Assembly (NCBI RefSeq): GCF_023856365.1
Contig: NC_064539.1
Coordinates: forward strand, 30,740,118-30,804,117
DNA length: 64,000 bases
From: Brienomyrus brachyistius
Lineage: Eukaryota; Chordata; Actinopteri; Osteoglossiformes; Mormyridae
Direction of reading: 5' to 3'
Shown here: one piece after another, positions 44,122 to 64,000 of the stretch
How the letters are laid out: every line of letters begins with the position of its first letter
Position numbering within the stretch: the stretch's first letter is position 1
The notes under the pieces: model-generated
The model's input: the letters and a program-made list of their open reading frames with translations, nothing else
Told to the model about the DNA's origin: nothing
The model's database searches: none
Program-made: the position numbers and the translations under genes

Positions 44122-45759
44122 TTATAAACTATTGCAAATAGTGTCTCTGTAATGAACTGCCTGTTCATTTAGAGGCTGAGGTGGATAAATGTCGTCATCC
44201 AGGGCCTCATCGTTCATTATGCCAGGGTGCTGATCCCCAGGGTCGTATGACAGGTTGTATAGGATGCAGCAGGCACACACTGCTGAACTGATCTTCTGAA
44301 TACTGTCCATTTGCAGGTATTTCAGTCGGCGGAACTTGGACTTTAGAATTCCAAATGCCTGTTCAATGACCACACGGGCACCATTCAGTTTCCTGTTATA
44401 GTTTTTTTGCCGGTCTGTGAGGTGTCCATTGTCCTGATATGGCTTCAGCAACTGAGGCAGGAGTGGGAAGGCGGAGTCTCCAATGATGTGCAGACCCTCC
44501 GGCATGAGGGATCGGGGGTCCTCCACCAGAGCCTCAGCAACTGCCGTGTGCCGGAAAGCTCTGGCATCATGCCAGCTGCCAGGGTGTCCCACACTCACGT
44601 GGCAAAATCTCCTCTGGCTGTCGCAAAAGCCAATCAGAATGACAGAATAAAAATTCTTCCGGTTTAGGTATGCCAGTGGGTTCTTTCGGTGTGGCTTCCG
44701 AATCGGGATGTGGCAGCCATCAACAGCCAATCCGGTCCGTGGGAAACCTGCCCTAGCAAATCCCAACTCTGACCTATGAAGAGTTTGCCCCACTGGCCAG
44801 GTAACATGATGTACCATGTGTGTGTTTATCAGCACACAAAACTGATGCAAATGAACCATCAAAGAGGACTTGCTGATATTAAAGCGGTTTGCAACAGCCC
44901 TATAGGACTCTTGATTAGCCAGGGTCCATAAGCAGGCCAGGACAATGTCTTTTAAGGGGACTTTGGTGTTCAGGGGATTTTGGTAAACAGGACCAAGTGT
45001 GGTGATGACATCCTGCGATAGTAAATATGAGAAAACAGGTCATTGGTAACATGCAAACATTGTTATAATAAACTATAACAATAAAGTAGCCATAAAATGC
45101 TGCACATACCTCCACTTGTCCTTTAGAAAGCCGGAAATGACTCCTAAACTCTGGCAGATTGTATAGAGGGATGACATCATCCACAAACCCAATCATTTTT
45201 GGAACATGCCTAGAAGGGGATAAAATAAATGCATTTTCTTCTCAACACATTATCTCACCTTATTTCAGTTATGGGCTCCTTAAAAGACACAGAAATGATT
45301 TCAATAAGAACTGATTTATTTCTTGTGAGATTTCTGGCGAACACATTTTTGAGACAAAACATTTGGGTAAGCAGCCTAGAGGAATGAATATAATGAATAT
45401 ATGTAAGAAAAAGGATGTGTGAAAAGCACGTGGATGCAGCCTGTCAGCTACTCCTCCCCTCGCAGGCTGAGCTTTCTTTACGAGTCTAGGGTAAACTCAC
45501 GCCACTTCTTATCTTAAATTTGAGTAAAAATATTTTATTACAGTAATGTAGCCTGAGTTATCGAGTTTTAGATTTTAATCTGCCCTGTTCCGTGAGCCGA
45601 AACTAGAGAGCTTAGGTTATAAATATTATATGATGCATATTTTTATGCAGTTTTAAATTACCTTCGCTGTTCGCCGAATTCTTCATGCAAAAACACGGGA
45701 ATTTCCACGATGTCGATTTCGTCTGCCACAAAAAACGCCAACGCCGCAAGATCCGCCAT
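44122..45759 (-). CDS. PIF/Harbinger DDE transposase, 3 exons
   Basis: Cut-and-paste transposase of the HARBI1-like DDE_Tnp_4 family. Exons 45759-45662, 45209-45110 and 45012-44122 have GT/AG borders and matching phases, giving 362 aa with no stop (human HARBI1 has 349). Catalytic residues are all present: D in LAVDGCHI, D in IIGDSAFP and E in VIEQAFGIL, with 37 residues between the last two. An N-terminal helix-turn-helix-like segment precedes them (SYRAVANRFNISKSSLMVHL). The frame beginning at 44862 is only part of exon 3. It faces the Myb-like gene, and the copy could still be functional. Confidence 0.9.
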
Positions 45760-49018: not shown

Positions 49019-50586
49019 ACCTAACTGACAGAGGAGTTGTGTTGTGACCTCTGGTGGACAAACTACGTGCGACCGCACTGAAAACACGGTTGAAGGAGAG
49101 TCGTCTTCTCTGCCTCTTTAATGGTTACTTATTGCCTGTTATAAACGCTGATACAGTATATTTGCAATAAGCTCATGTCGGCCGTTAATACAGGGGCACA
49201 GATTTATCGGCTGGGCTCTGCTCAGGACTTCTGAAAATGGTGTGATATCAACAATAAAACCACTGGCCATCCTTCTGCAGTGGAAAACCGAAGTGAGCTG
49301 CACTGTAACTAGTCTCTGGGTTACTGCATGCTTGTGGAAAAGCACCACTGCTGGTGAGACACGAGAATACAGCCACAGACTGATGTATGCTGGTGAACCT
49401 GATTACATTGAGACAAATCACACAAACTTTGGCTTTTAATAGAGATTTTTTTTTGGGGAAGTGTGGTGAGCATGTGGGGGGGGTATTGGAGGAATGTAAA
49501 GGTTTGTCGAGCCTTTGCTTAGTGACACAAAAAAACCTCAGTCGTTCATTGGCCAGGGGAAAAGTAGCAGGAAATTAGAAAGGAGTTGAACCAAAGATCG
49601 TACATAAACACCTTTTCTACTCTATGATCAGAATGATAAGCAAAGTGGATGGCAGATTTCAAAAATGGTTGACTGAGAAAGGCTGGAAATACTGATATAC
49701 TGACAGATATAATTCCCTGCTACATAAAGACTCCCAGATACAAACCAAAGTAAAAAACTTTTATCCTCCAACACCAAATAGCCATATATGCTTATCTGTC
49801 AGTGTTATGGTTTTGTATTGTTTTTAAAATTTTGTTTACTTTTTACATTTTTAAAATTATGATTATAAATCTATTTTAGTTTTAGTTTTGTTTTCATTAG
49901 TTTCATTTTATTTTGAAGATGTAAATCAGTTTGTTATATATTTTTATAGGCTTTAGTAATTTTATTTCTGGGGATAGTACTGCAAAATGTTTCATTGTAG
50001 TGCCATTGGCTGTTTCATTTTATTTTAAAGATGTAAATAAATTCGTATTTTATTTCATATATGGCCACGCTTGCGACAGAGTGAGCAGACAAGTGCAGAA
50101 GCAGCACGAGTAGCTAAATTTCGGGGACATTCATTCTCACGTAAACACAATTTGCCACAATCAAGGTCAGAAATAATTTATCGAAGTTACATCCATATAT
50201 TGTGCGATAATTCGATAATGTACTTATCATGACAGGGTTAACTGTGACTTGATTGTTTTTAGTTTGATGTGTATGTCAAATCACTTCTTTTTTTTTGTTC
50301 CATCCAGGTCCACAGACCAAGGTGATGAGAAGCATTTATTAACAAAGCAGCCTGAACCCCAGTCAGGTGAGTTCAGTCTTAGTTTTGCTATTTCCGGTCA
50401 GGCTATGAACATGTCAAATAGAGGCAGATCCAGCCTCCAGGGCTGCATCCTCTTGAGAAGTCCATCCAACCATGATGATAGAAATTCATTTATCATTTCA
50501 CAAGTATAAAGGAATTCTGTAGTTTTCACTTTTCTTGTCTCTCTGCTATGCTATTTTTAGCCATTAATTGAGTGCCCCTCATTTAG

Positions 50587-50655
50587 AGCTTCAATCGTTT
50601 AGGAGCCCTGAACAAGCACCAACAAACTCACACAGGAGAGAGGCCCTACTAGTGC
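50587..50655 (+). pseudogene. Isolated zinc-finger fragment inside an intron
   Basis: Reads SFNRLGALNKHQQTHTGERPY followed by a stop: the second half of one C2H2 finger and its linker. It is placed where copy 1 has plain intron sequence between the non-coding exon and the SINE. Confidence 0.75.
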
Positions 50656-50990
50656 TGTCACTTTATGACATTAGGGGCCTTGCTGAAGAGCCCAACACTG
50701 ATATGACCACTCTGTCAGCCGCAGGATTTGAACCGGCAACCCTCTGATCACAGGCACAGAGTCCAGTCACACAGTCACACACAGCTACATTAGGCAGGAC
50801 AAGTTTCCAAATACTTCGGATCTTCATCCTGCTGACCCAGTTGGATAAGAGCTGAGAGCTCAGAGTCTGATGGTGCAGGACAGATACCTCGTGTGTGTTA
50901 TGATTCTGCTAAATGAACAACTTCAGTACATGTTCACCATTCCCTTTCTGTTCACAGACGTCCCCCCACAGGGCTGTGGCCAGCTGCAGC

Positions 50991-51095
50991 ATGGACCAGA
51001 AACCTCCCCAGCTACGTGTGGCAGATGTGAAGGAGGAAGTGCAGGACGTCCTCATATCGGATGTGGACGGGGCCGGGCACAGCTGCCCTGACAAG
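50991..51095 (+). pseudogene. Orphan first coding exon of a duplicated zinc-finger gene
   Basis: 35 codons, [20 protein letters not shown] and so on, nearly identical to exon 1 of the gene at 37864, with an intact GT donor at 51096. No second exon or finger exon follows within 1 kb, and the virus-like element begins soon after. Confidence 0.85.
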
Positions 51096-51274
51096 GTGAA
51101 ATGGAGCGCTGCTGGTGTGGGGCCCAGCTGCCTTCTGCACTCACAGGTTTCCCGTCTTGCTTATTAGTATCCTGGGAACCGCATGAACCTTGACCTTTCT
51201 GAAGTCATCTGGGATTTTACTCACTTTTTTCTACTTTTCCCAGAGGGGCTGTATGTCTGAAATGTCTGAATCAG

Positions 51275-51400
51275 TTGTTGGTACCTAAGAGAACATTAAA
51301 AATTCAAGAATATTGGTGAATAGAGCAAGTTCACCTACATCATTTGTTTGAGCAAATTACGAATCTGCTCGTTCAACTGGTTCATGCATGAGACCCAATG
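51275..51400 (+). repeat. Interspersed repeat R, copy C (3' fragment)
   Basis: Matches the end of copy A (TACCTAAGAGAACATT, GAATATTGGTGAATA, ATCTGCTCGTTC) and extends about 45 bases past the end of homology with copy B. It is the most diverged copy. Confidence 0.65.
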
Positions 51401-51519
51401 TCAGGAGATCATGTGTGAGAGAGAGAGATGCAATACCGCTTTTGTCAAAATGACAGGTCGGGTCAAAGGTCACGTTCAAAAGTTCAGTGGGCGGAGCTTA
51501 TGTTGTGGTGGGTTGAGCT

Positions 51520-51800
51520 TGGTTGTGTAACTGACGCAATAGCATGTGGATTTAATTATTTATTTAAATATTTTTTTTGTCTTCTTCCCCGGGGGTTGGT
51601 TGTGTAACTGATGCAATGGTATTTGGATTTAATTATTTATTTATTATTTTAAATGATTGTGGCTTAGGGGGCATGGGTTGGTTGTGTTAGTGATGCAATG
51701 GTATTTGGATTTAATTATTTATTATTTTAAATGCTTATTTTAAATGTTTATTATTTTAAAATGATATTGAGGAGAGTGCTTATGAGTGTGTATTATTTTA
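51520..51800. repeat. AT-rich tandem repeat, about 75-bp unit
   Basis: Three diverged units of the form GGTTGTGTAACTGATGCAAT, then TTTGGATTTAATTATTTATT, at about 51520, 51595 and 51680. Two further units of a second motif (TGATATTGAGGAGAGTGCTT) lie near 51762 and 51807. Confidence 0.75.
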
Positions 51801-51924
51801 AAAATGATATTGATGAGAGTGCTTATGAGCGTGTGTTATTTGAATAAGTTATTATTATTATTATTTTGTGGGGCGTGGGGGGGGAGTGAGCGTGGCTGGG
51901 TTACCTGATGGAGCGCGAGCGTAC

Positions 51925-52060
51925 GGTGTGCGGTAGCGTGGTAAGGTCCCCGGGCTTCGGAGAATCAGCAAAGGACTTATTCACATACTGGTGCGGTAGC
52001 GCGGAAAGGTCCGCATGGCTTTGGATAATCCTCGGAGAGAGCGATGCGGGAGAGCTGAGA
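51925..52060. repeat. Direct repeat next to the virus-like element
   Basis: Two units about 63 bases apart share GTGCGGTAGCG, AAGGTCC and GGCTT then GGA.AATC, at about 51927 and 51990. No ORF is supported here. It could belong to the element's outer end or to host sequence. Confidence 0.5.
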
Positions 52061-52256
52061 GGCGTGCTGCTGCGCGAGTCTGAGAGAGACTGTGGGATAA
52101 AATGGTAAAGTTGGAGCAAAGAATGAGAGGAGGAGGTGCAGGGTCTATCGTCCAATAAAAACGCTCGGCGCTAGTTTTGACCGTGTGTTTTTTCCTCACG
52201 CGAGCGTTTGTATCACATTGGCGTATGGCGCCAATTTGTAAAGGTCATAAGTCGAG

Positions 52257-52492
52257 ACATACATCGAGTCTGTCAATTTGTCCGCCAGTAAATTCTGCAG
52301 GGCCGTGCCACCTGGCCATCGAGGCGCCCCCCCCTGTTTAAAGTTTTGTTTTCACATACGTCCCAAATTACAGATAATTTTCTTACACAGGCACGAGTAG
52401 CATCATCAAGGCCGTACCACCTGGTCATACATCAAGTCTGACAATTTGACCGCCAGTAAATTCTGTTTATAGTTTTGTTTGTCATACATGAC
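52257..52492. repeat. Repeated leader motif upstream of the virus-like genes
   Basis: Two copies of a motif with CATACATCGAGTCTG (or CATCAAGTCTG), CAATTTG.CCGCCAGTAAATTCTG and GTTTA.AGTTTTGTTT lie at about 52257-52360 and 52428-52492. The first has a 35-base insertion. CCGT.CCACCTGG.CAT also occurs twice. Function unknown; terminal or promoter repeats are possible. Confidence 0.65.
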
Positions 52493-52599
52493 CGTGCAGA
52501 TATGGGGTGACAGAGACAATTAAATTGTATTACGTCGAGCGGGGGGCCTTTTCCTCCTCCTAGAGGCACAACGCCTTACCAAAGTTTGTACCAGCCAAA

Positions 52600-52792
52600 G
52601 AACCACAAGTTTCATCGAGACCTTACCCGGTAAGTATATTATTTCTTTTATTCCTGTTATAAAAATGCTATTCAATTAAAAAATAACATTCTAATAATAG
52701 GTATTCTCTTTTTTTTTTTCTATGTACGAGAGAGAGAGAGAGAGAGACTACGCCGACCGGTCAAGAGAAAATCTGCGAGAGAATCAACAGGT
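52600..52792 (+). promoter_or_regulatory. 5' leader with a probable intron
   Basis: A strong splice donor (CCCG/GTAAGTAT at 52629/52630) is followed by a T-rich tract at 52709-52721 and AG dinucleotides at about 52730 and again at 52789-52790 (CAACAG), three bases before the first ATG. A spliced leader for the 283-aa gene or the polymerase is likely. The (GA)n run at 52730-52747 is a small microsatellite. Confidence 0.5.
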
Positions 52793-54624
52793 ATGGACGG
52801 AGCAACACCCCCAGCGGCTATACCCGAAGCCTTATTAAATGAAATAGCCATTATCAACAATGCTAATAATGAAAATGATGCGGATTACTCTGCTCAACAC
52901 GACTCGCCACCAGCGGCGTCTGCTGAAACACTGGCCCAGGACCCCTGTTTTCTCCCATCCTTAGAGACATTAACAAGCATGTTAAATGAAAGGGGTTCTG
53001 AAGCAGAAGCGGGGCTACCCCCCACCGACGAGGTCGCATGGTCCCCCGCGGATTCTGAATTGTGGGAGGCCTTGTCAGACGTGGAATTTCTTCTCGATGC
53101 TGAGGAGATTGAAAATGAATTTGGGCTGGGACAATTTGAAAATGTTCAACAGGAAGGTGGCGGTGCCGTCGGTGACGTGGATCCCCAGCCTGACGGGGTC
53201 CTTCATCGCCGCAGATTCAATAACGTACAGATTAGGCGGATTCTAAATATCCCGCGACCTAGAAACGAAGGCAATTTCCGCGAGTACTATGAAAATGTAA
53301 TCGAGGGGTTTCAAAATATTGTGAATGAGGCGATTCCTTACGCCGTATGGGGAGCCTATATACAGGTCACCCTGCGCGCTGACTTTTTAAACGACGAGCT
53401 GTCGCAAATTGTACGGTATGGGGTGGGGGAGCTGACAGACTTGCAGCAGCTGCTGGATCGCCTGGTACAGTCTAATCAAGAGATTTTAAACGATTCCAAC
53501 CTAGAAGTAATCGTAGACGTAATAAATATCCCACGCGGCGGTGCGAACAAACGTAAACTACAGACCATGTTAGCTTCAGAAATAATTTCTAAGCCAGACA
53601 CATGTTTATCATTAATAACAACACCAACGCGTGTTTCGCCATAAACTTGGCGCACCTGCTGGACGAAAACTTTACTGTTGCCGAGGCTGAAAAGCTCGGC
53701 CTGGAGTTACAGGAGAAAGCGGGATTCACCCCCGATCACGCAGTCGCTTTGAATGACATTATCAATTTCGAGAAAATCATTGATTGCAAAGCAGTGGTGT
53801 ATTATCAACAACCTTATTCAAACAATCTCCAAATTTACCAGACACCCACGCCTAGCGACGGTAGACGGGCGGTGTATTTCTTTTTACACAATCAGCATTT
53901 TTACGGCATTAAAAGCGTAAAGGGCTTCTTAGGCGTGGGGTACGTTTGCCCGAGCTGTTTCAAAGGGTACGATTCGCCTCACTCTCATCAATGCGAAAAA
54001 TTTTGTAGCGTCTGTCAGACTAATTGCAGAGAAGGTGAAAGCACACCGGCGATACTATGTGAGCGTTGTAATTTCAGATGTTTAAATGACACCTGCTTTG
54101 AGCGCCACCGTACGCCTAGGGTCTGCCCAGTTAGGGGGGAGCTCGCTACCCCCTGTGACAAGTTCAGAAAATGCAAAGCCTGCGGGCTCAGATACTACCT
54201 CACTCCCGAGAACCCAAAACCGCACTCGTGTAAAGCGGAAAAATGTAATATCTGCGACGCTAAACTCCACACGGCCGTGTCAGACATATCCACCCCACAT
54301 CTCTGCTATCTAAATCCACCCGAGAAGCCTAACATAGGGGAACGGGCCGAAAGGGGTGAGGGGCGTAAAAAGGCCACCGAATATGTGTTTTTTGACTTTG
54401 AAACATCTCAGAGGTCGGGTACCCATATCCCGGTGTACGTCTGCGCCATCTCCGATCAGAACGAGACAATGACCGCCGAGGGGCCCAACTGCGCGCTACA
54501 GTTTCTCAGACATTTCAGGGCGCCCTGTTATAGAGGCGTCTGTTTCATTAGTCACTACGGTAAGGCATTCGATAATTACATCATACTGAACGCGATGGTG
54601 AAGGAAGGCGTGGAACCGCGTGTG
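52762..54624 (+). repeat. Inverted repeat, left arm
   Basis: Partner of 62138-64000. It contains the whole 283-aa gene and the first 341 codons of the polymerase gene. Its outer limit is set only by the window end, so the arm is probably longer and may include the leader and the element's terminus. Confidence 0.97.
52793..53644 (+). CDS. Acidic 283-aa protein upstream of PolB, left copy
   Basis: I do not recognise this protein. Residues 1-130 are acidic and Ala/Pro/Glu/Asn-rich, probably disordered (LWEALSDVEFLLDAEEIENE). A short basic patch follows (HRRRFNNVQIRRI, about residues 138-150). The C-terminal half looks folded, with conserved-looking blocks YYENVIEGFQNIVNEAIPYA, GELTDLQQLLDRLVQSNQEI and VDVINIPRGGANKRKLQTML. 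The last 43 bases overlap the start of the polymerase gene in another frame, so the two genes are expressed from one region. Position and acidity would suit an early regulatory protein or a replication partner of the polymerase (for example the terminal protein), but that is inference only. An almost identical second copy is at 63969-63118. Confidence 0.85.
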   Translation: MDGATPPAAIPEALLNEIAIINNANNENDADYSAQHDSPPAASAETLAQDPCFLPSLETLTSMLNERGSEAEAGLPPTDEVAWSPADSELWEALSDVEFLLDAEEIENEFGLGQFENVQQEGGGAVGDVDPQPDGVLHRRRFNNVQIRRILNIPRPRNEGNFREYYENVIEGFQNIVNEAIPYAVWGAYIQVTLRADFLNDELSQIVRYGVGELTDLQQLLDRLVQSNQEILNDSNLEVIVDVINIPRGGANKRKLQTMLASEIISKPDTCLSLITTPTRVSP

Positions 54625-56862
54625 GTATCGCAGGGGAATAAAATCATTCTCATCCTGGACAGCCTGTTTGAGCAGAGGTACATCGACAGTCACTCCTTTC
54701 TAAGCATGCCGTTGAGAAAAATCCCCGATGCGATGGGATGCTCGACTCAGATGCGAAAAGGCTATTTTCCGCATCATTTCACAGACGTGGAAAACTTTAG
54801 TTACGTGGGACCCTACCCCCCTCCCGATCAATTTGGGCCCGATCAAATGTCCACCAAAGAACGCGACAAGTTTTATCAATGGTACGACGCTGTAAAGCAC
54901 CAGACCTTTAATTTTCACAAAGAGATGATCGCTTACTGTAAGAACGATGTGGAGATTCTGAGAGAGGGCTGCTTGCGCTTCCTGCGGGAGTTTAAAACGC
55001 TCACGGGGTGCGATCCCTTCTCCGCGGCCACCATCGCTTCGGCCGCGTTGCTAGTTTATAGGACAAATTTCCTGCCCAGAGATACGATCGCGATCCCGGA
55101 TGTATGGGATTACAGGAGGCAATACAAAAGTTATTCGAGCGTGTCCATCCAGTGGCTGGAATTCATCGGGCGCGCGCGCGGCATCGAAATTCGACACGCG
55201 CTGCGCGGGGGTGAAGTGCGTGTGGGGCGCTTTCACTTAGACGGATACGCCGAGATTGAGGGGGAGAAATGGGCTTTCGAGTTTCTAGGCTGTCAGTTTC
55301 ACGGCTGTCCTACCTGCAACAACGAACACGATATCTGCCCCCTGACCCGCGAGAGCTTCGGTGCCCTGTACGTTAAAACAAGGGAAAAACTCGAGTCGTT
55401 GCGCCAAGAGTTTAATATGAACGTGGAATCCATCTGGGAACACGAATGGGCTCACGCTAAAACTCACGACCCACAGGTACAGCGTTTCCTGTCAGACTTT
55501 GAGCCCCCTGAGCCCCTAAGGCCGCGAGAAGCGCTGTTTGGGGGTCGGACGTCGGCCATTCGCCTGCGTTACGACGTCACGGGGCAAGAGCGCGTCCGCT
55601 ACGTGGATTTCACGTCGCTGTACCCGTACACTCTGGCTAAATGTGAATTCCCCGTGGGGCACCCGGAAATCATTCATTCGAATTTTAAGCCTCTGAATGA
55701 ATACTTTGGCCTGATCAAAGCCACGGTCAACACCCCGCGCGAGCTGTTTTTCCCCGTCCTACCCAGCAGACTGCCAAATGGGAAACTGGTGTTTACACTG
55801 TGCAGGACGTGCGCGATCGAGAACAGACAGGAGGAGGCGTGCGGGCATTCCGACGCAGAGCGGGCATTGACAGGCGTGTGGGTATCTGCGGAGCTCAATC
55901 TGGCTTTAGACAGGGGGTACTCGCTCATTAAAATTCACGAAGTGTGGCATTTTCCCCAGACCAGCGGCGACCTGTTTAGAGATTACATTAAAACCTTTCT
56001 CAAAGTGAAGCAGCAGGCTTCGGGCTACCCCGACGACGCGACCGATGACGTGGGTCGCAGGGAGTACATAAAAAACTATCTCGAGCGTGAGGGGATCGAA
56101 TTGGAGCCCGATCAGATAGTGTCTAATGAAGGGAAGCGGCAAGTGTCCAAACTTCTGCTTAACTCTCTGTGGGGTAAACTGGCGCAGAGGAGCAACATGC
56201 TCCAGACATGTATAGTGTCTGACCCGGGGGAATTATTTAATTTTTTCTGCTCGGACCTGTACGAGATTTCCAGCTTCGCGTTTGTCAACGACGAGGTCGC
56301 CCTCATCCGCTGGCGTTTCAAGTCTTCCTACAAAGTGCCGCCGGGAAAGACTAACATATTCATAGCGTGTCAAACTACCGCGTGGGGTCGGTTGACGCTT
56401 TACAAAGAACTGGAAAGATTGGGGCGGAGGGTGCTGTATCACGACACCGACAGCATCGTGTACATAAGCAGGCCTGGTGAATATGACCCGACCTTAGGCA
56501 ATTACCTGGGCGAGCTGACGTCCGAATTAGCCCCAGACGAATACATTGCTTCGTGGGGTGCGCTGGGACCAAAAAGTTACTGTTACCGACTCAACAACGG
56601 GAAAACACAAATGAAATGTAAGGGTATAACTCTAAATTACGAAACCTGTCAAAAGGTAAACTTTGACAGTATGATCGGATTGATTGAAAACTACATTGGA
56701 GGTTGTTGGAATAACCCCGCTATAATGACGCAGTACAACAAAATCGAACGCGACATGAAAAGCTTTCGCCTGTTTAATAGGCCTCTAGATAAAAAGGTCA
56801 GGGTCGTCTACGACAAACGCAGATTGCTGGCTAGCGGGGAAACTCTGCCTTTTGGTTACTGA
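53602..56862 (+). CDS. Protein-primed family B DNA polymerase, full length
   Basis: 1086 aa. Replicative DNA polymerase with proofreading exonuclease, of the kind found in Polintons and adintoviruses that copy linear genomes from a protein primer. An N-terminal region (about residues 115-235) is rich in CxxC pairs, suggesting several zinc ribbons. The exonuclease follows: motif I FFDFET (about 264), motif II around KAFDNYI (about 320, with FD in place), motif III YCKND (about 446). Polymerase motifs: A YVDFTSLYPY (about 668), B LLLNSLWGKL (about 851), C YHDTDSIVYI (about 946). All catalytic acidic residues are visible and there is no internal stop. The ATG at 53602 lies inside the preceding gene. 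Left arm of an inverted repeat up to 54624. Confidence 0.95.
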   Translation: MFIINNNTNACFAINLAHLLDENFTVAEAEKLGLELQEKAGFTPDHAVALNDIINFEKIIDCKAVVYYQQPYSNNLQIYQTPTPSDGRRAVYFFLHNQHFYGIKSVKGFLGVGYVCPSCFKGYDSPHSHQCEKFCSVCQTNCREGESTPAILCERCNFRCLNDTCFERHRTPRVCPVRGELATPCDKFRKCKACGLRYYLTPENPKPHSCKAEKCNICDAKLHTAVSDISTPHLCYLNPPEKPNIGERAERGEGRKKATEYVFFDFETSQRSGTHIPVYVCAISDQNETMTAEGPNCALQFLRHFRAPCYRGVCFISHYGKAFDNYIILNAMVKEGVEPRVVSQGNKIILILDSLFEQRYIDSHSFLSMPLRKIPDAMGCSTQMRKGYFPHHFTDVENFSYVGPYPPPDQFGPDQMSTKERDKFYQWYDAVKHQTFNFHKEMIAYCKNDVEILREGCLRFLREFKTLTGCDPFSAATIASAALLVYRTNFLPRDTIAIPDVWDYRRQYKSYSSVSIQWLEFIGRARGIEIRHALRGGEVRVGRFHLDGYAEIEGEKWAFEFLGCQFHGCPTCNNEHDICPLTRESFGALYVKTREKLESLRQEFNMNVESIWEHEWAHAKTHDPQVQRFLSDFEPPEPLRPREALFGGRTSAIRLRYDVTGQERVRYVDFTSLYPYTLAKCEFPVGHPEIIHSNFKPLNEYFGLIKATVNTPRELFFPVLPSRLPNGKLVFTLCRTCAIENRQEEACGHSDAERALTGVWVSAELNLALDRGYSLIKIHEVWHFPQTSGDLFRDYIKTFLKVKQQASGYPDDATDDVGRREYIKNYLEREGIELEPDQIVSNEGKRQVSKLLLNSLWGKLAQRSNMLQTCIVSDPGELFNFFCSDLYEISSFAFVNDEVALIRWRFKSSYKVPPGKTNIFIACQTTAWGRLTLYKELERLGRRVLYHDTDSIVYISRPGEYDPTLGNYLGELTSELAPDEYIASWGALGPKSYCYRLNNGKTQMKCKGITLNYETCQKVNFDSMIGLIENYIGGCWNNPAIMTQYNKIERDMKSFRLFNRPLDKKVRVVYDKRRLLASGETLPFGY

Positions 56863-57227
56863 AATGTAAAACTAGCAGCATCGCAAAAGGGCTTTTAAAG
56901 TTTTTTCTAAAAATCAAAGATGTTCATTTGTTTTAAAATGAAAAGTTTTTTTCAAAGATGTTTTTTAAAATCAAAGTAAGATGTACAAATGTTTTAAACT
57001 GAGAAATGTTCCTAGTAAGATGTTTTTGAAAATGAAAAGTTTTTTCCAAAGATGTTTTTTAAAATCAAAGATGTTTTAAGATGTTTTTAAAATGTTCCTA
57101 GTAAGATGTTTTTTATTTTCAAACTTGTGTACTGAAATGTTTTGTACATTTATCACAAGAGTTTTTATTAAAAACTTACTCATGCACTCTGTGTCTGTGA
57201 AAGCTGACACCCCTCCAGCAGTGGTTT

Positions 57228-57309
<82 letters not shown>

Positions 57310-57376
57310 TCGGAAAGATTTAAAAGATTAGGGCAGTATTTACCGTTTCGTCAGTGTGTTTTTTTTTTTTTGCAAA
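56863..57376. other. Spacer with degenerate repeats and a GT microsatellite
   Basis: 56880-57110 is built from partial tandem copies of AAAGATGTTTTTTAAAATCA and TGTTCCTAGTAAGATG, about 95 bases apart. 57232-57307 is an uninterrupted (GT)n of 38 repeats. No gene. The spacing is unusual, because all other genes of the element are packed tightly. Confidence 0.75.
57232..57307. repeat. (GT)38 microsatellite
   Basis: Perfect GT dinucleotide repeat of 76 bases between the polymerase and ATPase genes. The Val-Cys frame across it is an artefact. Confidence 0.97.
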
Positions 57377-58054
57377 ATGATGGGTAGCGGCGTGAGAGAG
57401 GTCGACTTTGATCACCGTTTAGAACTCCCGTTTACGGCTATAATCGCAGGGGCAAGTTCTTCGGGGAAAACCTATTTCACTAAAGAAATGCTTTTAAATC
57501 AGAGTCACTGTTTCATAGGGGGCCCCGTTAAAAAAATTGTGTGGTGTTTCGCTTCCCATCAGCCGCTTTATGATGAACTACGCGATCGGATCAGCGAAAT
57601 TGAATTTATACAAGGGCTTCCCAAAAGCTGGGAGGATGAGGAGCGCTTCCCCTCAGGCTCCTTGATAATCATCGATGATTTGATGGACAGCGCGTCTGAA
57701 AACAAACTCGTGGCAGAAGCTTTCACGAGGTTCAGACATCACCGTCAAATCTCGGTCATCTACCTGGTGCAGAACGTATTTCACCAGGGCAAGTACAGCA
57801 GGACTATAGCCCTAAATACGACTTATTATTGTCTGTTTAAGAATGTGCGAGACAGAATGCAAATCAAAGTTTTAGCTCAGCAAATGTTTCCTTGGCAGAA
57901 AAAGTTTTTTCTAGATGCCTACCATGAGGCCACAGGGCCCGCGCACGGCTATTTATTGGTCGATTTGAGAGCCACGTGCCCAGAAGAGTTCCGACTCAGG
58001 ACCGGATTATTACCGGGGTCGTTACCCATCGTCTTTCTACCGGCGAGCCATTGA
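57377..58054 (+). CDS. DNA-packaging ATPase, A32/FtsK-HerA type
   Basis: 225 aa from the ATG at 57377; the upstream GTG at 57356 is in frame but follows a T-run and is unlikely. A Walker A motif GASSSGKT (residues 25-32), a Walker B motif SLIIIDDLM (about 95-103) and a later NTTYYCLFKN segment fit the packaging ATPase of Polintons, adintoviruses and nucleocytoplasmic large DNA viruses. It is expected to drive genome loading into the capsid. It is 17 bases from the next gene. No break is visible. Confidence 0.92.
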   Translation: MMGSGVREVDFDHRLELPFTAIIAGASSSGKTYFTKEMLLNQSHCFIGGPVKKIVWCFASHQPLYDELRDRISEIEFIQGLPKSWEDEERFPSGSLIIIDDLMDSASENKLVAEAFTRFRHHRQISVIYLVQNVFHQGKYSRTIALNTTYYCLFKNVRDRMQIKVLAQQMFPWQKKFFLDAYHEATGPAHGYLLVDLRATCPEEFRLRTGLLPGSLPIVFLPASH

Positions 58055-58071
58055 TTTATCACTACTAAGCT

Positions 58072-58413
58072 ATGTCCGAACATCTCAGGAAACACCTGCC
58101 GACCCTTAAAGTTTTACAGAGGACGAGGGGGGTGAAACGTAAAAAGATTCTTACGGCTGACCCATCTAACGACATAATTTTGGCTCTCTCCGAAATCTGT
58201 CTCAATCTCATAAGAGGTCGCATACCTTTAACCGTAGCTCAATTTACCAAACTCAAGAAACAGAAAAGATTGATTAAACTTTTCGCATGTAAGAAAAACA
58301 GCGTCGCTAGGAAACGCGTGGCAATTCTTCAAAAAGGAGGATTCTTATTACCGCTCTTATCAGTGGCTCTGCCATTCGTTACAAGCCTGTTTGCCGGTAA
58401 GACGGCTAACTAG
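58072..58413 (+). CDS. Small basic protein with hydrophobic C-terminus
   Basis: 113 aa, not assigned. The N-terminal two thirds is Lys/Arg-rich (RTRGVKRKKI, KKQKRLIKLFACKKN) and the end is hydrophobic with a GG turn (KGGFLLPLLSVALPFV, about 90-105). Basic-then-hydrophobic small proteins encoded beside the ATPase are common in adintovirus-type genomes, where they are suspected virion components similar in style to adenovirus core or membrane-active peptides. That likeness is by layout and composition only. It is 14 bases from the following gene. Confidence 0.75.
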   Translation: MSEHLRKHLPTLKVLQRTRGVKRKKILTADPSNDIILALSEICLNLIRGRIPLTVAQFTKLKKQKRLIKLFACKKNSVARKRVAILQKGGFLLPLLSVALPFVTSLFAGKTAN

Positions 58414-58427
58414 CCTTTTCCAGCAAC

Positions 58428-59249
58428 ATGAGCCAAGTCAAGAAAATGTTTATGCTCAGCCCCCAGCAACTGCGTACGCTGACCCAGAGGGCGACCCCGC
58501 ATACCATCGGGGAATCGGCCCTGGGTGAACTCGAACACCAGATGCAGGGTTTAATAAATCAGCCGGCTATGCATCTGGATGAAAAAGTGAAGAGATACAA
58601 CCAATTGCTACAGAGGTATCTGAATCTAGCCCGAAAAGAGGAAAATCAGGGGCGAGAAATTGTCCTTACAGAGCGGAAAGAAAAAACGGACGAGGAGGAG
58701 GAGGGGAGACAGCCTGACGGCGGCGGCGCGACTGGGGACAAATCTGTACAGGAAGTTATCCAGCAAGTGGCGCCTAGGGCTAGAAAGAACGTGGGGTACA
58801 TCTTGCATAAACTGCTCGATTCCGACGGGGCGGTACGTTGGACCCAGTCGGGTGAACTCATCATCAGAGATAGACCCATTAAAGGTTCCCATATTTTAGA
58901 TTTGATGAAAACTTTATCGCAGCCTAAATCCCACGCCGGCGGATATCCTAAAGGCTGGGAACCCTTTTTAAACGTGATATCAGAATTAAACATCCCCCTC
59001 ACGAGCGTGGGTAACATCCAAGCCAGGAAAGCCCTAAGTCATCTTAAAGATTACGGCGGCAGGGATCCCCCGCCTCCCTCCTCCCCTCCTGTGAAACAGA
59101 ACCTCGGGAGACGTAGAAAACGTATTGTTGACGACTCACCACCACCGCTTGAGGGAACCCCTCACACACCGCGCGATTCCTCCCCAGAATATCGTTTATG
59201 GCCTTTAAAGGGTACTCCTTATGCTCCGTGGATAGATTACAACGATTAA
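58428..59249 (+). CDS. 273-aa protein of unknown function
   Basis: Not recognised. Residues 1-80 are helical with a likely coiled coil (HLDEKVKRYNQLLQRYLNLA). Residues 80-105 are a charged Glu/Lys/Gly linker. Residues 110-200 look like a folded domain (ARKNVGYILHKLLDSD, VRWTQSGELIIRDRPIKGSH, ILDLMKTLSQP). The tail is Pro-rich with a basic patch (GRRRKRI) and two GTP-Y/H-T/A-P-like repeats (EGTPHTPRD, KGTPYAPWI). The domain resembles in style proteins of unknown function found beside capsid genes in this virus group. It is the last rightward gene before the polyadenylation zone. Confidence 0.75.
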   Translation: MSQVKKMFMLSPQQLRTLTQRATPHTIGESALGELEHQMQGLINQPAMHLDEKVKRYNQLLQRYLNLARKEENQGREIVLTERKEKTDEEEEGRQPDGGGATGDKSVQEVIQQVAPRARKNVGYILHKLLDSDGAVRWTQSGELIIRDRPIKGSHILDLMKTLSQPKSHAGGYPKGWEPFLNVISELNIPLTSVGNIQARKALSHLKDYGGRDPPPPSSPPVKQNLGRRRKRIVDDSPPPLEGTPHTPRDSSPEYRLWPLKGTPYAPWIDYND

Positions 59250-59302
59250 GTGTTTTATATACGTGTGTGAAAAAGAATTAAAACGCCTGTAACGCGTCGG
59301 TT

Positions 59303-59329
59303 AATAAAATGTAAAATTTATTGAATAAA
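59303..59329. terminator. Shared polyadenylation zone for convergent genes
   Basis: On the plus strand AATAAA occurs at 59303-59308 and 59324-59329; on the minus strand AATAAA is at 59317-59322, between them. The rightward cluster ends at 59249 and the leftward at 59365, so both transcript sets can end here in 27 bases of overlapping signals. Confidence 0.8.
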
Positions 59330-59364
59330 GGGTGTCACGTTTTTATTTTTTCCCCAACATGAAT

Positions 59365-59910
59365 CTAACAAGCATAACAATCTTTAAATAGTTTTAACGA
59401 ACATACATTTTGCGGCTTTGAAAGTTTATCGGCATTAACACGGCTAATACACTTGTGATATTTCTTGATAAACTCGGATACTAGAGCGTCGTTTTTCCTC
59501 AAGTCGTCAGAGTACAACATCATAGTCTCTTGAAATGAAAGTCCCTTGAAGCGCCGGTAGAGGAAAAAGGCGACGTGGGCCCCGCACGTGGAAGAAAAGT
59601 CATGTTGAACTTGACGCGTATTATACCTTATTTCAGTAGCATGCCTCCCCAAGAAGCTCATAAAACTCTTTGGGTAGTAAGGGGAATCGGGGGGATAACC
59701 GTAAGAATCAAAGAAGGAGGCTTTACCCTCTTGGGGCTCCAAAATTATCCCGATCCAGTGTTCACCCTCTCTATTCTGGTCATGCGTGTTTGCGACCAGA
59801 AAAGCGGGCCTGGTCTCTATGCGGGTGGGTAATAAATCGCTAGGCCACACGCCTCCAAAAGCATCCCCCAGCAGGGGCCGTAAAACGCATTCCAGCTGGT
59901 GAGTGTTCAT
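59365..59910 (-). CDS. Adenain-like cysteine protease
   Basis: 181 aa. Maturation protease of the adenovirus endopeptidase/Ulp1 fold, which cleaves virion precursors. The catalytic set is visible in the right order: His51 in EHWIGI, Asp68 in FFDSYG, a Gln at 100 or 102 (oxyanion), and Cys109 in SSTCGAH. The length fits the family (about 200). The start ATG at 59908-59910 is 11 bases after the capsid gene's stop, so the leftward genes are almost contiguous. No break. Confidence 0.92.
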   Translation of the reverse strand: MNTHQLECVLRPLLGDAFGGVWPSDLLPTRIETRPAFLVANTHDQNREGEHWIGIILEPQEGKASFFDSYGYPPDSPYYPKSFMSFLGRHATEIRYNTRQVQHDFSSTCGAHVAFFLYRRFKGLSFQETMMLYSDDLRKNDALVSEFIKKYHKCISRVNADKLSKPQNVCSLKLFKDCYAC

Positions 59911-59921
59911 GATGATGATGA

Positions 59922-61235
59922 TTAAAAGTCCACCAAAACCTGTCTCTTGGCGTTTATTTCAATCACGCTGTCGAAGCAGGCGTAGACGATGAGACTCATG
60001 GTTCGAGGTAGTGGGGCTCTGAACCTTAAATCCAGACGGCACGTGCCGCTGATGGCGGGTGACAGGGCACCGCCGTCCAGCTCGTCGTCTCGGGAGAGAT
60101 TGAGAGCAAATAGCGAGTATCCGTTTTCAAAATCCTCGCGGTTGATGCATAAGGGCGAATCCTTTAAATGCCTGTTTGTAGCCAGGAAAAGGTTGTAAAA
60201 CTCTCTGACCGACTGCCTCGCTCTAAAATCGGGCTGGAACGGTTTGCTGGGTATGTGTCGCCCGTTGACTGAGAGGCTCAGAAATTCCAGGTCACAATGC
60301 TGAAACCTGAACGGGTTTCTGTTTCGCGTGCCCACGAACGCGGCGTGGTCCACGATCCCCAAAACGATGTAGCGCGGTAAGTTGCCCAGGAAGAGGTTGT
60401 CCTGCGGGCAAACCCGCGATTGTGCGGGCAGCGTATAATTTTTAACGACTACCCTGCTTATAGGGTACAGGGCGTTTGCTTTCATGAGAGCGGCCGAGTG
60501 ACCCAGTGACACCGCCGGGGAGACCTCCACTTTTTTCACAAACAGGTTGGCCCTCAGTATTTTCAGCTCGTAATCGGTGTCATTTCTACACATGAGACTA
60601 AAGTCGCTTTTAGCCTTTACAAACTTTAAGCGTATATCCACGTTGTTTAACAGCATTCGTTCGCTGAAAAAAATATCGGCGTGTATAGGACCCATCAGAG
60701 AAAACTCCTGAGAGTTTCTACAGAAGGCGGCTCGCTTCTGTAACCCCACGTTGGGGCCCTGCGCTGAGACGTCCACGCTATCCAAGTCGCCCCCGACGTC
60801 TTTGTACCAGAGCCCTGCCGAAAACTGACTCTCTAGCGTATCCGTAGAAAAATTGAGCAGGGTCTCTATGACTGACCTATAGGGGTGCGTGGCCGACGAA
60901 GAACTGATCAGGACGTCGTTCAGACTCACATCCAGCTGGGAGAATATGCCGTTTAGCGGGTACTGTATAATACCGCAGGGGTCGGCGTCAACCAGGGGGG
61001 CTCCATCGGCCCTAACGATCTTGAGCCTTAGATATAGCAGTGTAGAGTTGAGGTCCACATAGAAATTGCCCGACCCCGGTATTAGGAAATCCAAAACATC
61101 CTGATCGGTAATGGAATTTAATGGGTTGATTTCTACATAATTGGTCTGATCTATGGATAATTGCGTCATAGGGGCCGCAAACAGGTCCAATTCAGATTTG
61201 GTACATTCAGCCGAGAGCCGGTGAGCTAGAGCCAT
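59922..61235 (-). CDS. Major capsid protein, hexon-like double jelly roll
   Basis: 437 aa. The sequence has the pattern of the Polinton/adintovirus major capsid: an N-terminal ELDLFAAPMTQLSID, the PLNSITDQDVLDFLIPGSGN block, LFVKKVEVSPAV, then a second-domain PRYIVLGIVDHAAFVGTRNRN and an end with LIVYACFDSVIEINAKRQVL. The double jelly roll forms trimers that tile an icosahedral shell. Spacers to the neighbours are 11 and 27 bases. The frame is intact. Assigned by overall pattern rather than a single motif. Confidence 0.88.
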   Translation of the reverse strand: MALAHRLSAECTKSELDLFAAPMTQLSIDQTNYVEINPLNSITDQDVLDFLIPGSGNFYVDLNSTLLYLRLKIVRADGAPLVDADPCGIIQYPLNGIFSQLDVSLNDVLISSSSATHPYRSVIETLLNFSTDTLESQFSAGLWYKDVGGDLDSVDVSAQGPNVGLQKRAAFCRNSQEFSLMGPIHADIFFSERMLLNNVDIRLKFVKAKSDFSLMCRNDTDYELKILRANLFVKKVEVSPAVSLGHSAALMKANALYPISRVVVKNYTLPAQSRVCPQDNLFLGNLPRYIVLGIVDHAAFVGTRNRNPFRFQHCDLEFLSLSVNGRHIPSKPFQPDFRARQSVREFYNLFLATNRHLKDSPLCINREDFENGYSLFALNLSRDDELDGGALSPAISGTCRLDLRFRAPLPRTMSLIVYACFDSVIEINAKRQVLVDF

Positions 61236-61262
61236 TCTTGTTTACGCTGCGTTTTCTCTCTC

Positions 61263-61709
61263 TTAAAATATGTCCCCGGGGGGTTTCCTGTTTCTCTTGG
61301 CGGATGGAGACTTGGGAATCCTGACGCCTCTGCCAGATTTTTTTTTCTTTTTTTTTTTATGACCTTGCAGCAGGGCTAGAGGTGCTTGGGCTCTCTTTCT
61401 ACTCCCCCTCCTCCGAGAGAGGAACAGCAGACCCGACCCTTCCTGCTTGGGGTCACCTGTGTTTGTAAAACGGCCGCTGACTACAGAGCTGACTAGATCC
61501 GATCCTATTCCTTTGACCGCCGATTTCAAATGAGGTTTCGCTATATCGACCCCACGCTTAAGAAAGGGTAAAACGAATCTAAAAGCCCTACTGAGCATGG
61601 AGCCCAACCCACGCCCGTACATCACGGGGCTCCCCGCAAAACCGGGGAGCCCATGTCCCGCCTGACTGGTGTAATACGTAATAAATCTCTGAGGATTGTG
61701 GTACGCCAT
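61263..61709 (-). CDS. Basic virion-type protein, 148 aa
   Basis: Start taken at the ATG 61709; the in-frame GTG at 61727 is less likely. Gly/Tyr-rich N-terminus (GHGLPGFAGSPVMYGRGLG), an amphipathic segment (FRFVLPFLKRGVDIAKPHLK, about 40-60), and a strongly basic tail with an uninterrupted Lys-run (about 118-124) and SAKRNRKPPG at the end. This layout is like minor capsid or core proteins (pVI or pVII style) that lie between hexon and penton genes in related elements. No enzymatic motif. Confidence 0.75.
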   Translation of the reverse strand: MAYHNPQRFITYYTSQAGHGLPGFAGSPVMYGRGLGSMLSRAFRFVLPFLKRGVDIAKPHLKSAVKGIGSDLVSSVVSGRFTNTGDPKQEGSGLLFLSRRRGSRKRAQAPLALLQGHKKKKKKKSGRGVRIPKSPSAKRNRKPPGDIF

Positions 61710-61751
61710 GCTTCCCCCCCCCAACACCTGCGCTTTCTCTTGTTTTGTTTT

Positions 61752-62137
61752 TTAAACGGGCCGAAAGTGCAGTTTGACGATCGTTTTTCCGTAGGAGAAA
61801 TTAATCAGAGTATTCTGATCGTTCTTTATCTCGATATGCAAATTCTGTAGGCTCTGCTTGTTCACCGGTACGTACTGCAGCTTGTGGAACGGCAAAGTGA
61901 CTACGTCGCCGAACGCACCGTCTATTTTAACGGTTCTGAGGAGCGGGACTACAAATTCCCCCACGTGCTGCGGTTCCACGATGTTACAGTAGACGTACAT
62001 ATTGTAGAATCCCGCGTGAATGTCGGCCGGGTAGGGTGAGGTCGACCCGCTACCTCCTCCTAGGTTATACCAGTGACCCGGCTCAAAGCCCAGCATGTAG
62101 GCCAGAGTAGGTTTAAATTGGATCTTGTATTTATGGT
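61752..62137 (-). pseudogene. Penton-like minor capsid protein, C-terminal fragment
   Basis: The last 114 aa after an internal Met, plus about 14 in-frame codons up to the junction, form the C-terminal part of a single-jelly-roll penton-type protein (LGFEPGHWYN; GFYNMYVYCNIVEPQHVGEF; FSYGKTIVKLHFRP). The N-terminal portion is missing because the inverted polymerase copy starts at 62138. No start codon and promoter of its own are evident, so a functional penton is not made from this copy. Sequence after the break is undamaged. Confidence 0.85.
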
Positions 62138-63160
62138 CACACGCGGTTCCACGCCTTCCTTCACCATCGCGTTCAGTATGATGTAATTATCGAATGCCTT
62201 ACCGTAGTGACTAATGAAACAGACGCCTCTATAACAGGGCGCCCTGAAATGTCTGAGAAACTGTAGCGCGCAGTTGGGCCCCTCGGCGGTCATTGTCTCG
62301 TTCTGATCGGAGATGGCGCAGACGTACACCGGGATATGGGTACCCGACCTCTGAGATGTTTCAAAGTCAAAAAACACATATTCGGTGGCCTTTTTACGCC
62401 CCTCACCCCTTTCGGCCCGTTCCCCTATGTTAGGCTTCTCGGGTGGATTTAGATAGCAGAGATGTGGGGTGGATATGTCTGACACGGCCGTGTGGAGTTT
62501 AGCGTCGCAGATATTACATTTTTCCGCTTTACACGAGTGCGGTTTTGGGTTCTCGGGAGTGAGGTAGTATCTGAGCCCGCAGGCTTTGCATTTTCTGAAC
62601 TTGTCACAGGGGGTAGCGAGCTCCCCCCTAACTGGGCAGACCCTAGGCGTAAGGTGGCGCTCAAAGCAGGTGTCATTTAAACATCTGAAATTACAACGCT
62701 CACATAGTATCGCCGGTGTGCTTTCACCTTCTCTGCAATTAGTCTGACAGACGCTACAAAATTTTTCGCATTGATGAGAGTGAGGCGAATCGTACCCTTT
62801 GAAACAGCTCGGGCAAACGTACCCCACGCCTAAGAAGCCCTTTACGCTTTTAATGCCGTAAAAATGCTGATTGTGTAAAAAGAAATACACCGCCCGTCTA
62901 CCGTCGCTAGGCGTGGGTGTCTGGTAAATTTGGAGATTGTTTGAATAAGGTTGTTGATAATACACCACTGCTTTGCAATCAATGATTTTCTCGAAATTGA
63001 TAATGTCATTCAAAGCGACTGCGTGATCGGGGGTGAATCCCGCTTTCTCCTGTAACTCCAGGCCGAGCTTTTCAGCCTCGGTAACAGTAAAGTTTTCGTC
63101 CAGCAGGTGCGCCAAGTTTATGGCGAAACACGCGTTGGTGTTGTTATTAATGATAAACAT
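62060..63160 (-). pseudogene. Truncated second copy of the polymerase gene
   Basis: The first 341 codons equal those of the polymerase at 53602 apart from two amino-acid changes (Ala to Thr near residue 30, Arg to Leu near residue 168). After the junction at 62138 the frame runs for 25 unrelated codons through penton sequence, out of its frame, and stops at 62060. It keeps the zinc-ribbon region and exonuclease motifs I and II but lacks exonuclease III and all polymerase motifs. It cannot be a polymerase. Confidence 0.93.
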
Positions 63161-64000
63161 GTGTCTGGCTTAGAAATTATTTCTGAAGCTAACATGGTCT
63201 GTAGTTTACGTTTGTTCGCACCGCCGCGTGGGATATTTATTACGTCTACGATTACTTCTAGGTTGGAATCGTTTAAAATCTCTTGATTAGACTGTACCAG
63301 GCGATCCAGCAGCTGCTGCAAGTCTGTCAGCTCCCCCTCCCCATACCGTACAATTTGCGACAGCTCGTCGTTTAAAAAGTCAGCGCGCAGGGTGACCTGT
63401 ATATAGGCTCCCCATACGGCGTAAGGAATCGCCTCATTCACAATATTTTGAAACCCCTCGATTACATTTTCATAGTACTCGCGGAAATTGCCTTCGTTTC
63501 TAGGTCGCGGGATATTTAGAATCCGCCTAATCTGTACGTTATTGAATCTGCGGCGATGAAGGACCCCGTCAGGCTGGGGATCCACGTCACCGACGGCACC
63601 GCCACCTTCCTGTTGAACATTTTCAAATTGTCCCAGCCCAAATTCATTTTCAATCTCCTCAGCATCGAGAAGAAATTCCACGTCTGACAAGGCCTCCCAC
63701 AATTCAGAATCCGCGGGGGACCATGCGACCTCGTCGGTGGGGGGTAGCCCCGCTTCTGCTTCAGAACCCCTTTCATTTAACATGCTTGTTAATGTCTCTA
63801 AGGATGGGAGAAAACAGGGGTCCTGGGCTAGTGTTTCAGCAGACGCCGCTGGTGGCGAGTCGTGTTGAGCAGAGTAATCCGCATCATTTTCATTATTAGC
63901 ATTGTTGATAATGGCTATTTCATTTAATAAGGCTTCGGGTATAGCCGCTGGGGGTGTTGCTCCGTCCATACCTGTTGATTCTCTCGCAGATTTTCTCTTG
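62138..64000 (-). repeat. Inverted repeat, right arm (copy of the left end)
   Basis: Base x here equals base 116762 minus x on the opposite strand for the whole stretch 52762-54624. I compared all 1863 positions by eye and found no indel and four mismatches (three change an amino acid, one is silent). The arm continues past the window end. The spacer between the arms is 7513 bases. Confidence 0.97.
63118..63969 (-). CDS. Acidic 283-aa protein, right copy
   Basis: Same length as the left copy with one amino-acid difference (Val to Glu in YGVGELTD) and one silent change. It is complete, with its ATG at 63967-63969 and the same 43-base overlap with the truncated polymerase copy. The upstream leader is identical as far as the window goes. 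This is therefore the only complete gene of the element present twice. Confidence 0.85.
   Translation of the reverse strand: MDGATPPAAIPEALLNEIAIINNANNENDADYSAQHDSPPAASAETLAQDPCFLPSLETLTSMLNERGSEAEAGLPPTDEVAWSPADSELWEALSDVEFLLDAEEIENEFGLGQFENVQQEGGGAVGDVDPQPDGVLHRRRFNNVQIRRILNIPRPRNEGNFREYYENVIEGFQNIVNEAIPYAVWGAYIQVTLRADFLNDELSQIVRYGEGELTDLQQLLDRLVQSNQEILNDSNLEVIVDVINIPRGGANKRKLQTMLASEIISKPDTCLSLITTPTRVSP

What the first reader, a model, noticed from the sequence alone, without database searches (positions are those of the whole stretch)
52762..64000. Virus-like element whose right end is an inverted copy of its left end
Seen directly: 52762-54624 is mirrored at 64000-62138 with no gap and four mismatches in 1863 bases, and the copy extends beyond the window. 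The arms hold a full gene and a third of the polymerase, far more than the short terminal repeats usual for Polintons. Established: linear genomes copied by protein-primed family B polymerases keep an origin at each end, and adenovirus variants with left-end sequence at both ends are known. Inference: an intramolecular or panhandle event replaced the original right end (penton N-terminus, perhaps integrase) by a second left end, making a genome that could still be replicated in trans but lacks late functions. If other copies in the genome share this junction, it is a self-spreading defective lineage, not a one-off.
Basis: partly seen in the sequence, partly recalled or inferred. Interest (0 to 1): 0.88.

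Follow-up and report, generated by a model that had tools for sequence, protein, structure and literature searches.

The report
Fish Maverick with its left end twice
In what looks like a fish genome, a virus-like Maverick element has its right end, where relatives keep the integrase gene, replaced by an inverted copy of its own left end, a kind of damage known from other linear genomes; whether the altered element ever spread cannot be told from this window.

Summary
In detail: 52762-54624 is repeated, inverted, at 62138-64000 (1863 bases, 4 differences, no gap). The element is a vertebrate Maverick/Polinton; its closest protein relatives are in the fishes Paramormyrops and Brienomyrus. Its genes follow the published Maverick order, but the minor capsid (penton) gene keeps only its C-terminal half, and the inverted left end stands where the integrase is expected. 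One correction: the 'full gene' in the arms is the N-terminal part of the polymerase gene; relatives carry both parts as one protein. The same reading-frame break sits in both arms, so the polymerase gene was already broken when the arm was copied, unless gene conversion spread the break. Best reading: one end-replacement event by template-switching copy synthesis, as known for poxvirus ends and Streptomyces chromosome arms. Whether it happened on a replicating genome or later in the chromosome is open: the window stops inside the right arm, and the assembly search did not complete (15 tries). No second copy of the junction could be looked for, so the 'self-spreading defective lineage' has no evidence for or against it. 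A defective variant of a known element; moderately interesting.

The parts
52762..54624 (+). Left arm as far as its mirror image is visible (the true arm may begin further left)
62138..64000 (-). Right arm, inverted copy of 52762-54624, cut by the window edge
62137..62138 (.). Junction between minor capsid gene remnant and inverted polymerase end; no visible homology on the checkable side (3 of 20 bases)
52793..53644 (+). N-terminal piece of the polymerase gene (283 aa), in another frame than the rest
53602..56862 (+). [quoted passage not shown]
   Evidence: PF03175; 92% and 90% to P0121 and P0122
57356..58054 (+). Packaging ATPase, Pox_A32 type
   Evidence: scanned from 57380
58072..58413 (+). 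ORF of 113 aa, PM by position only
   Evidence: no family match
58428..59249 (+). ORF of 273 aa, PZ by position only
   Evidence: weak matches only
59365..59910 (-). Adenovirus-type protease (Peptidase_C5)
59922..61235 (-). Major capsid protein, double jelly-roll (437 aa)
61263..61727 (-). ORF of 154 aa, PW by position only
   Evidence: no family match
61752..62137 (-). Minor capsid (penton) gene remnant, C-terminal 127 codons; the N-terminal half is gone
62060..63160 (-). Right-arm copy of the polymerase ORF, running over the junction to a stop after 366 codons
63118..63969 (-). Right-arm copy of the N-terminal polymerase piece, with the same frame break
51400..52792 (.). Noncoding stretch in which the element's left terminus probably lies (not located)
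   Evidence: last base similar to other DNA of the window is 51399; end-motif scan

Best explanation
A young, defective vertebrate Maverick (Polinton) in which the right end was replaced in one event by an inverted copy of the left end. Shown: gene order, truncation of the minor capsid gene, no integrase match in the visible part, 99.8% identical arms, one frame break shared by both arms. Inferred: a broken or stalled DNA end inside the minor capsid gene switched, with little or no homology on the side that can be checked, to the opposite strand within the polymerase gene of the same or a sister molecule and copied outward to a left terminus (break-induced or template-switch copying, 'arm replacement'). 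This removed the N-terminal half of the minor capsid and, by inference, the integrase, the right accessory region and the original right end. The polymerase frame was already broken, so the product could replicate, be packaged or integrate only with proteins supplied by intact relatives. Stage undecided: on a replicating linear genome before integration (about 0.36), or on the chromosome after integration (about 0.28), in which case the copy would run on into the left host flank.
For: Arms and junction. Core genes in the order and orientation published for intact vertebrate Mavericks (PMC8097293 section 4 part 1). Fold matches for MCP and for a minor capsid relative. Minor capsid relatives of 254 aa have about 120-125 more residues at the N-terminus. 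TIRs of intact elements are 46-1447 bp, shorter than these arms of at least 1863 bp. Same frame break in both arms, not in P0121, P0122 or P0233: the arms are sister copies of one broken parent. Three of four arm differences change a residue, close to the 78% expected without selection. Precedents for one end replaced by the other: MVA-CR19, Streptomyces.
Against: The window ends inside the right arm: no terminus, no target duplication, no second copy of the junction seen. An assembly error is not excluded. At site 53424 the left arm shares its residue with Brienomyrus P0233 and the right arm with P0121 and P0122, which would fit two different source molecules; but the site is variable (57 of the 120 listed relatives gave a position there, with 11 residues or a gap), so recurrence is plausible. 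The shared frame break speaks against a genome that replicated itself. Microhomology cannot be tested without intact minor capsid DNA of a close relative.
Confidence: 0.64

Rival explanations
1. Two separate insertions of the same defective Maverick in opposite orientation, later fused by a deletion that removed the right part of the first and all but the left end of the second.
For: The residue split at 53424 fits two different source copies; both arms share the frame break, so both would come from one defective family.
Against: Needs two nearby insertions of a lineage with a broken polymerase plus a deletion with both ends inside elements, where one event suffices; arms differ at only 4 of 1863 sites.
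Confidence: 0.12
2. Assembly or library artefact: a chimeric read or a mis-join between two copies of the element.
For: Nearly identical arms; no reads, coverage or second assembly could be examined; the own-assembly search did not complete (15 requests).
Against: A simple fold-back read would place the arms next to each other; here 7513 nt of unique sequence lie between them and the junction joins unlike sequences cleanly. The right arm carries differences from the left at 4 sites. This is inference; it does not exclude a mis-join.
Confidence: 0.17
3. This arrangement is the normal, complete genome of a Maverick group with very long terminal repeats.
For: Maverick TIRs vary widely, 46-1447 bp.
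Against: The junction cuts the minor capsid gene in half and the arm carries about 46% of a polymerase gene with a broken frame; no integrase was found; the published layout has it at this end.
Confidence: 0.03

Closest known systems
Intact vertebrate Mavericks/Polintons (PMC8097293: outline, section 4 part 1 and passages read); adintovirus relatives such as P0133, named 'PolB [Larimichthys croaker adintovirus]' by its source
   Same: Homologous polymerase, ATPase, protease, MCP and minor capsid; same order and inward-facing modules
   Different: No integrase and no intact minor capsid in the visible part; polymerase frame broken; inverted repeat of at least 1863 bp made largely of coding sequence
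Vaccinia MVA-CR19 (PMC7198643, passages read)
   Same: One genome end apparently replaced by an inverted copy of the other, with gene loss on one side and duplication on the other
   Different: A poxvirus, with hairpin ends (recalled); a growing virus, not an element in a host genome with a broken polymerase
Chromosomal arm replacement in Streptomyces (PMC5869714, passages read)
   Same: Linear DNA with terminal proteins; a break in one arm repaired by exchange with or copying of the opposite arm; break-induced replication proposed
   Different: In the cases seen in the passages the switch points were long repeats present on both arms; here no homology is seen on the checkable side. A bacterial chromosome of megabases
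Adenovirus variants with left-end sequence at both ends
   Same: Protein-primed linear DNA; the packaging region near the left end also works near the right end (PMC5033970, passages read)
   Different: The variants themselves are recalled; no paper that describes one was read here. Nothing is known of a packaging signal in this Maverick

Membership tests
[quoted passage not shown]
   PF03175, 1.5e-41; 92% and 90% to Brienomyrus and Paramormyrops proteins. Met by homology; the gene is frame-broken. 'Protein-primed' rests on the published family name
Vertebrate Maverick/Polinton (by homology) | Packaging ATPase and adenovirus-type protease | tested here: met
   Pox_A32 5.4e-07, Peptidase_C5 6.1e-07
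Vertebrate Maverick/Polinton (by homology) | Double jelly-roll major capsid protein | tested here: met
   94% to a Paramormyrops protein, 46-61% to listed proteins named F54H12.2 or F54H12.2-like; Foldseek matches to double jelly-roll capsid proteins, TM-scores about 0.4-0.6
Vertebrate Maverick/Polinton (by homology) | Minor capsid (penton) protein | tested here: met
   127-residue remnant, 43-62% to the 12 relatives aligned; model of relative P0241 matches mavirus and adenovirus pentons. Present but truncated
Vertebrate Maverick/Polinton (by homology) | PM, PZ and PW proteins | tested here: inconclusive
   ORFs in the right places, no convincing family match
Vertebrate Maverick/Polinton (by homology) | Two gene modules in the published order, facing inward | tested here: met
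   against PMC8097293 section 4 part 1
Intact Maverick in the sense of PMC8097293 | Eight conserved intact ORFs, including integrase | tested here: not met
   No integrase domain in the 18 of 21 listed ORFs that were scanned (the other three are right-arm copies); minor capsid cut; polymerase frame broken. Filed as a defective derivative, not as an intact element
Intact Maverick in the sense of PMC8097293 | Terminal motif and 6-bp target site duplication | not testable with these tools
   The right end lies outside the window. In 51300-52800 AGTAGT is absent and AGAGAG occurs at several places; left end not located
End-replacement (arm replacement) product | One end replaced by an inverted copy of the other, with loss of the original end | tested here: inconclusive
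   Loss and inverted copy seen; that the copy runs to the terminus cannot be seen in this window
End-replacement (arm replacement) product | Duplicated arm runs to the terminus | not testable with these tools
   The genome search on the own assembly unanswered 15 times

The most novel reading that the evidence does not exclude
A two-left-ended Maverick genome, formed on a replicating linear molecule and already lacking a working polymerase and integrase, was copied and integrated with proteins of intact relatives, and persists as a defective-interfering-like lineage whose copies all carry the 62137/62138 junction.
Probability: 0.1. Interest if true: 0.75.

Novelty: new variant of a known kind. 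Interest (0 to 1): 0.42.

Why it matters
If the right arm ends at a viral terminus with a target duplication, it would be physical evidence that a vertebrate Maverick existed as a linear molecule that recombined at its ends and integrated with proteins supplied by others, as defective genomes of linear viruses do. Virus particles of Mavericks had not been observed according to the abstract of PMC8097293, so genomic traces of replication-linked end exchange would bear on whether they behave as viruses. If the copy instead runs on into host DNA, it is an inverted duplication of a piece of chromosome. A few kb of sequence beyond the window would decide this.

Tried and rejected
Tried without result: viral-contig scans with the polymerase and with an 18-sequence MCP alignment (17 of the 120 listed hits plus the window): 4 and 58 pattern matches, none confirmed as a relative. 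Phage records with the MCP: no match. PDB sequence search with the MCP: one hit at E 0.57; with the minor capsid alignment: two hits at E 0.073 and 0.13. PHROGs: polymerase families, and one weak match (0.028) of the 273-aa ORF. Own-assembly search for the junction: 15 identical requests, none answered; so the junction, full-length copies and outer ends were searched nowhere.

Rejected: a separate gene at 52793-53644 (it is polymerase N-terminus). Orthology of the window locus with Brienomyrus LOC125748000: the first 270 or so residues of P0121 have no match better than E 0.5 in the window apart from the stretch next to the viral start codon. Inference from the residue split at 53424: the site is too variable. 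A left terminus at the AG run near 52729: possible, untestable here. Papers: ten searches, of which 41 and 79 returned nothing. No listed title or abstract start (20 of 64, 13 of 13, 15 of 136, 10 of 25 papers shown) described a Maverick with a replaced end. That is no proof that none is in print: the library is open-access only and five papers were opened, one by outline, a section part and passages, four by passages.

Full report
OBSERVATION. The inverted repeat is real in the sequence given: 52762-54624 against 62138-64000, 1863 nt, no gap, four differences, 7513 nt between the arms. The window ends where the right arm is still matching, so 52762 is the mirror of the window edge and not a biological boundary. 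The identity stops sharply at 54624/62138: just inside the junction 3 of 20 bases agree.

WHAT THE ELEMENT IS. ORFs and Pfam scans give, on the + strand, a family B polymerase (PF03175, 1.5e-41), a Pox_A32-type ATPase (5.4e-07), and ORFs of 113 and 273 aa; on the - strand a Peptidase_C5 protease (6.1e-07), a 437-aa protein, a 154-aa ORF and a short last ORF. The 437-aa protein is 94% identical to a Paramormyrops kingsleyae protein, 71-74% to three proteins of unnamed source, and 46-61% to listed proteins named F54H12.2 or F54H12.2-like (215 hits, 120 listed). Its model (mean pLDDT 71.6) matches double jelly-roll capsid proteins of Singapore grouper iridovirus, Sputnik, PBCV-1 and mavirus (207 matches with E up to 0.001, 50 shown; TM-scores about 0.4-0.6). 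The last ORF belongs to a family of 27 hits, 17 of them 247-264 residues long; 12 were aligned with the remnant and 16 with each other. The model of one member, P0241 (pLDDT 89.3), matches mavirus penton at ranks 1-6 and adenovirus penton base in most rows below, with one PBCV-1 chain, among its 38 matches with E up to 0.001 (TM-scores to the query 0.47-0.65). This is the order given for intact vertebrate Mavericks: polymerase, ATPase, PM, PZ; then integrase, minor capsid, PW, MCP and protease on the other strand, both modules facing inward (PMC8097293, section 4 part 1). PM, PZ and PW are named here by position only.

WHAT IS MISSING. The minor capsid gene keeps its C-terminal 127 residues and is cut at the junction; 254-aa relatives have about 120-125 more residues at the N-terminus. 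In the published layout the integrase and an accessory region follow. Here the inverted polymerase end follows instead. No integrase domain appeared in the 18 ORFs scanned with Pfam (9, 9) of the 21 ORFs of at least 80 aa listed for 50000-64000; the other three are right-arm copies. Smaller ORFs were not scanned, and the part beyond 64000 is unknown.

THE 'FULL GENE' IN THE ARMS. The 283-aa ORF aligns to residues 1-310 of the 1388-aa Paramormyrops polymerase protein (P0122), 279-521 of the 1598-aa Brienomyrus protein (P0121) and 1-280 of another Brienomyrus protein (P0233); the 1086-aa ORF aligns to the rest of P0121 and P0122. So the two ORFs are one gene in relatives, with a frame break here. 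The same break is in both arms. The copied parent therefore already carried it, unless gene conversion spread it later. The other ORFs of the element are open; only the MCP and the polymerase were compared with close relatives.

AGE AND SELECTION. Four differences in 1863 sites are about 0.1% per arm. One is silent, three change a residue; random changes in the same stretch would change a residue in 78% of cases. At residue 27 of the polymerase ORF, P0121, P0122 and P0233 carry the left-arm residue A; T, the right-arm residue, occurs in 8 of the 77 listed relatives that align there. At residue 170, P0121 and P0122 carry the left-arm R; the right-arm L occurs in 6 of 101 rows, the rest mostly K or R. 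So the right arm looks derived at both. At residue 211 of the N-terminal piece the left arm agrees with P0233 and the right arm with P0121 and P0122, but the site is variable: of the 120 listed polymerase relatives (392 found), 57 gave a position there, with 11 different residues or a gap. No conclusion is drawn from it.

MECHANISM. One event suffices: a DNA end inside the minor capsid gene switches to the opposite strand in the polymerase gene of the same or a sister molecule and copies outward. The right end is lost and a second left end gained. [quoted passage not shown] In adenovirus the packaging region near the left end can also work near the right end (PMC5033970, passages). If the arm runs to a left terminus lying between 51400 and 52729, the rearranged element would be about 11.3-14.0 kb by arithmetic, against 12.7-24.6 kb for intact elements.

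Right: anatomy, loss of the penton N-terminus, kinship with linear genomes copied by family B polymerases. Wrong or unproven: the gene content of the arms, and 'could still be replicated in trans' as more than an assumption. The broken polymerase frame in both arms makes a chromosomal event nearly as likely as one on a replicating genome. My odds: end replacement 0.64 (replicating genome 0.36, chromosome 0.28), two insertions plus deletion 0.12, artefact 0.17, normal layout 0.03, something else 0.04. These are judgements, not computed.

LIMITS. The own-assembly search was asked 15 times in the same form and never answered. No reads, no right end, no second copy and no DNA of close relatives were available. 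The host is inferred from protein relatives only; that Paramormyrops and Brienomyrus are both mormyrids is recalled.

Noticed in passing
P0121 (Brienomyrus LOC125748000 isoform X1) against window 52781-56859: This gene model joins about 270 residues of unrelated sequence to the whole Maverick polymerase, starting a few codons upstream of the viral start codon, as if a host exon were spliced into the element. The joined part has no match better than E 0.5 elsewhere in this window.
   Followed up: partly
P0233 (Brienomyrus LOC125719075); window 54624: This gene model passes from the residues next to the arm end (VEPRV, window 54624) straight to about polymerase residue 626. It may be a prediction artefact or chance, but it breaks at the same codons as the window junction.
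   Followed up: no
window 52600-52793: A GTAAGT at about 52632, a T-rich tract and AG sites just before the polymerase start look like a leader intron (by eye).
   Followed up: no
window 52258-52297 and 52426-52465: Two 40-nt direct repeats (93%) 168 nt apart in the noncoding stretch left of the polymerase; possibly part of the terminal region.
   Followed up: no
window 56931-57113 and 57232-57307: A 94-nt tandem repeat and a perfect (GT)38 lie between the polymerase and ATPase genes.
   Followed up: no
window 36565-38091 and 50237-51399: Host-like sequence occurs twice in three pieces (76-89% identity, one piece out of order), once near a C2H2 zinc-finger ORF (38651-39700) and once left of the element.
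   Followed up: partly
window 44122-44862 (-) and 19042-20106 (-): A DDE_Tnp_4 transposase ORF and a rhodopsin-family 7TM receptor ORF.
   Followed up: partly
P0087 and P0220: Maverick-like capsid and polymerase proteins are filed under bacteria ('Candidatus Enterovibrio escicola', 'Candidatus Thiodiazotropha taylori'), perhaps host DNA in symbiont assemblies.
   Followed up: no
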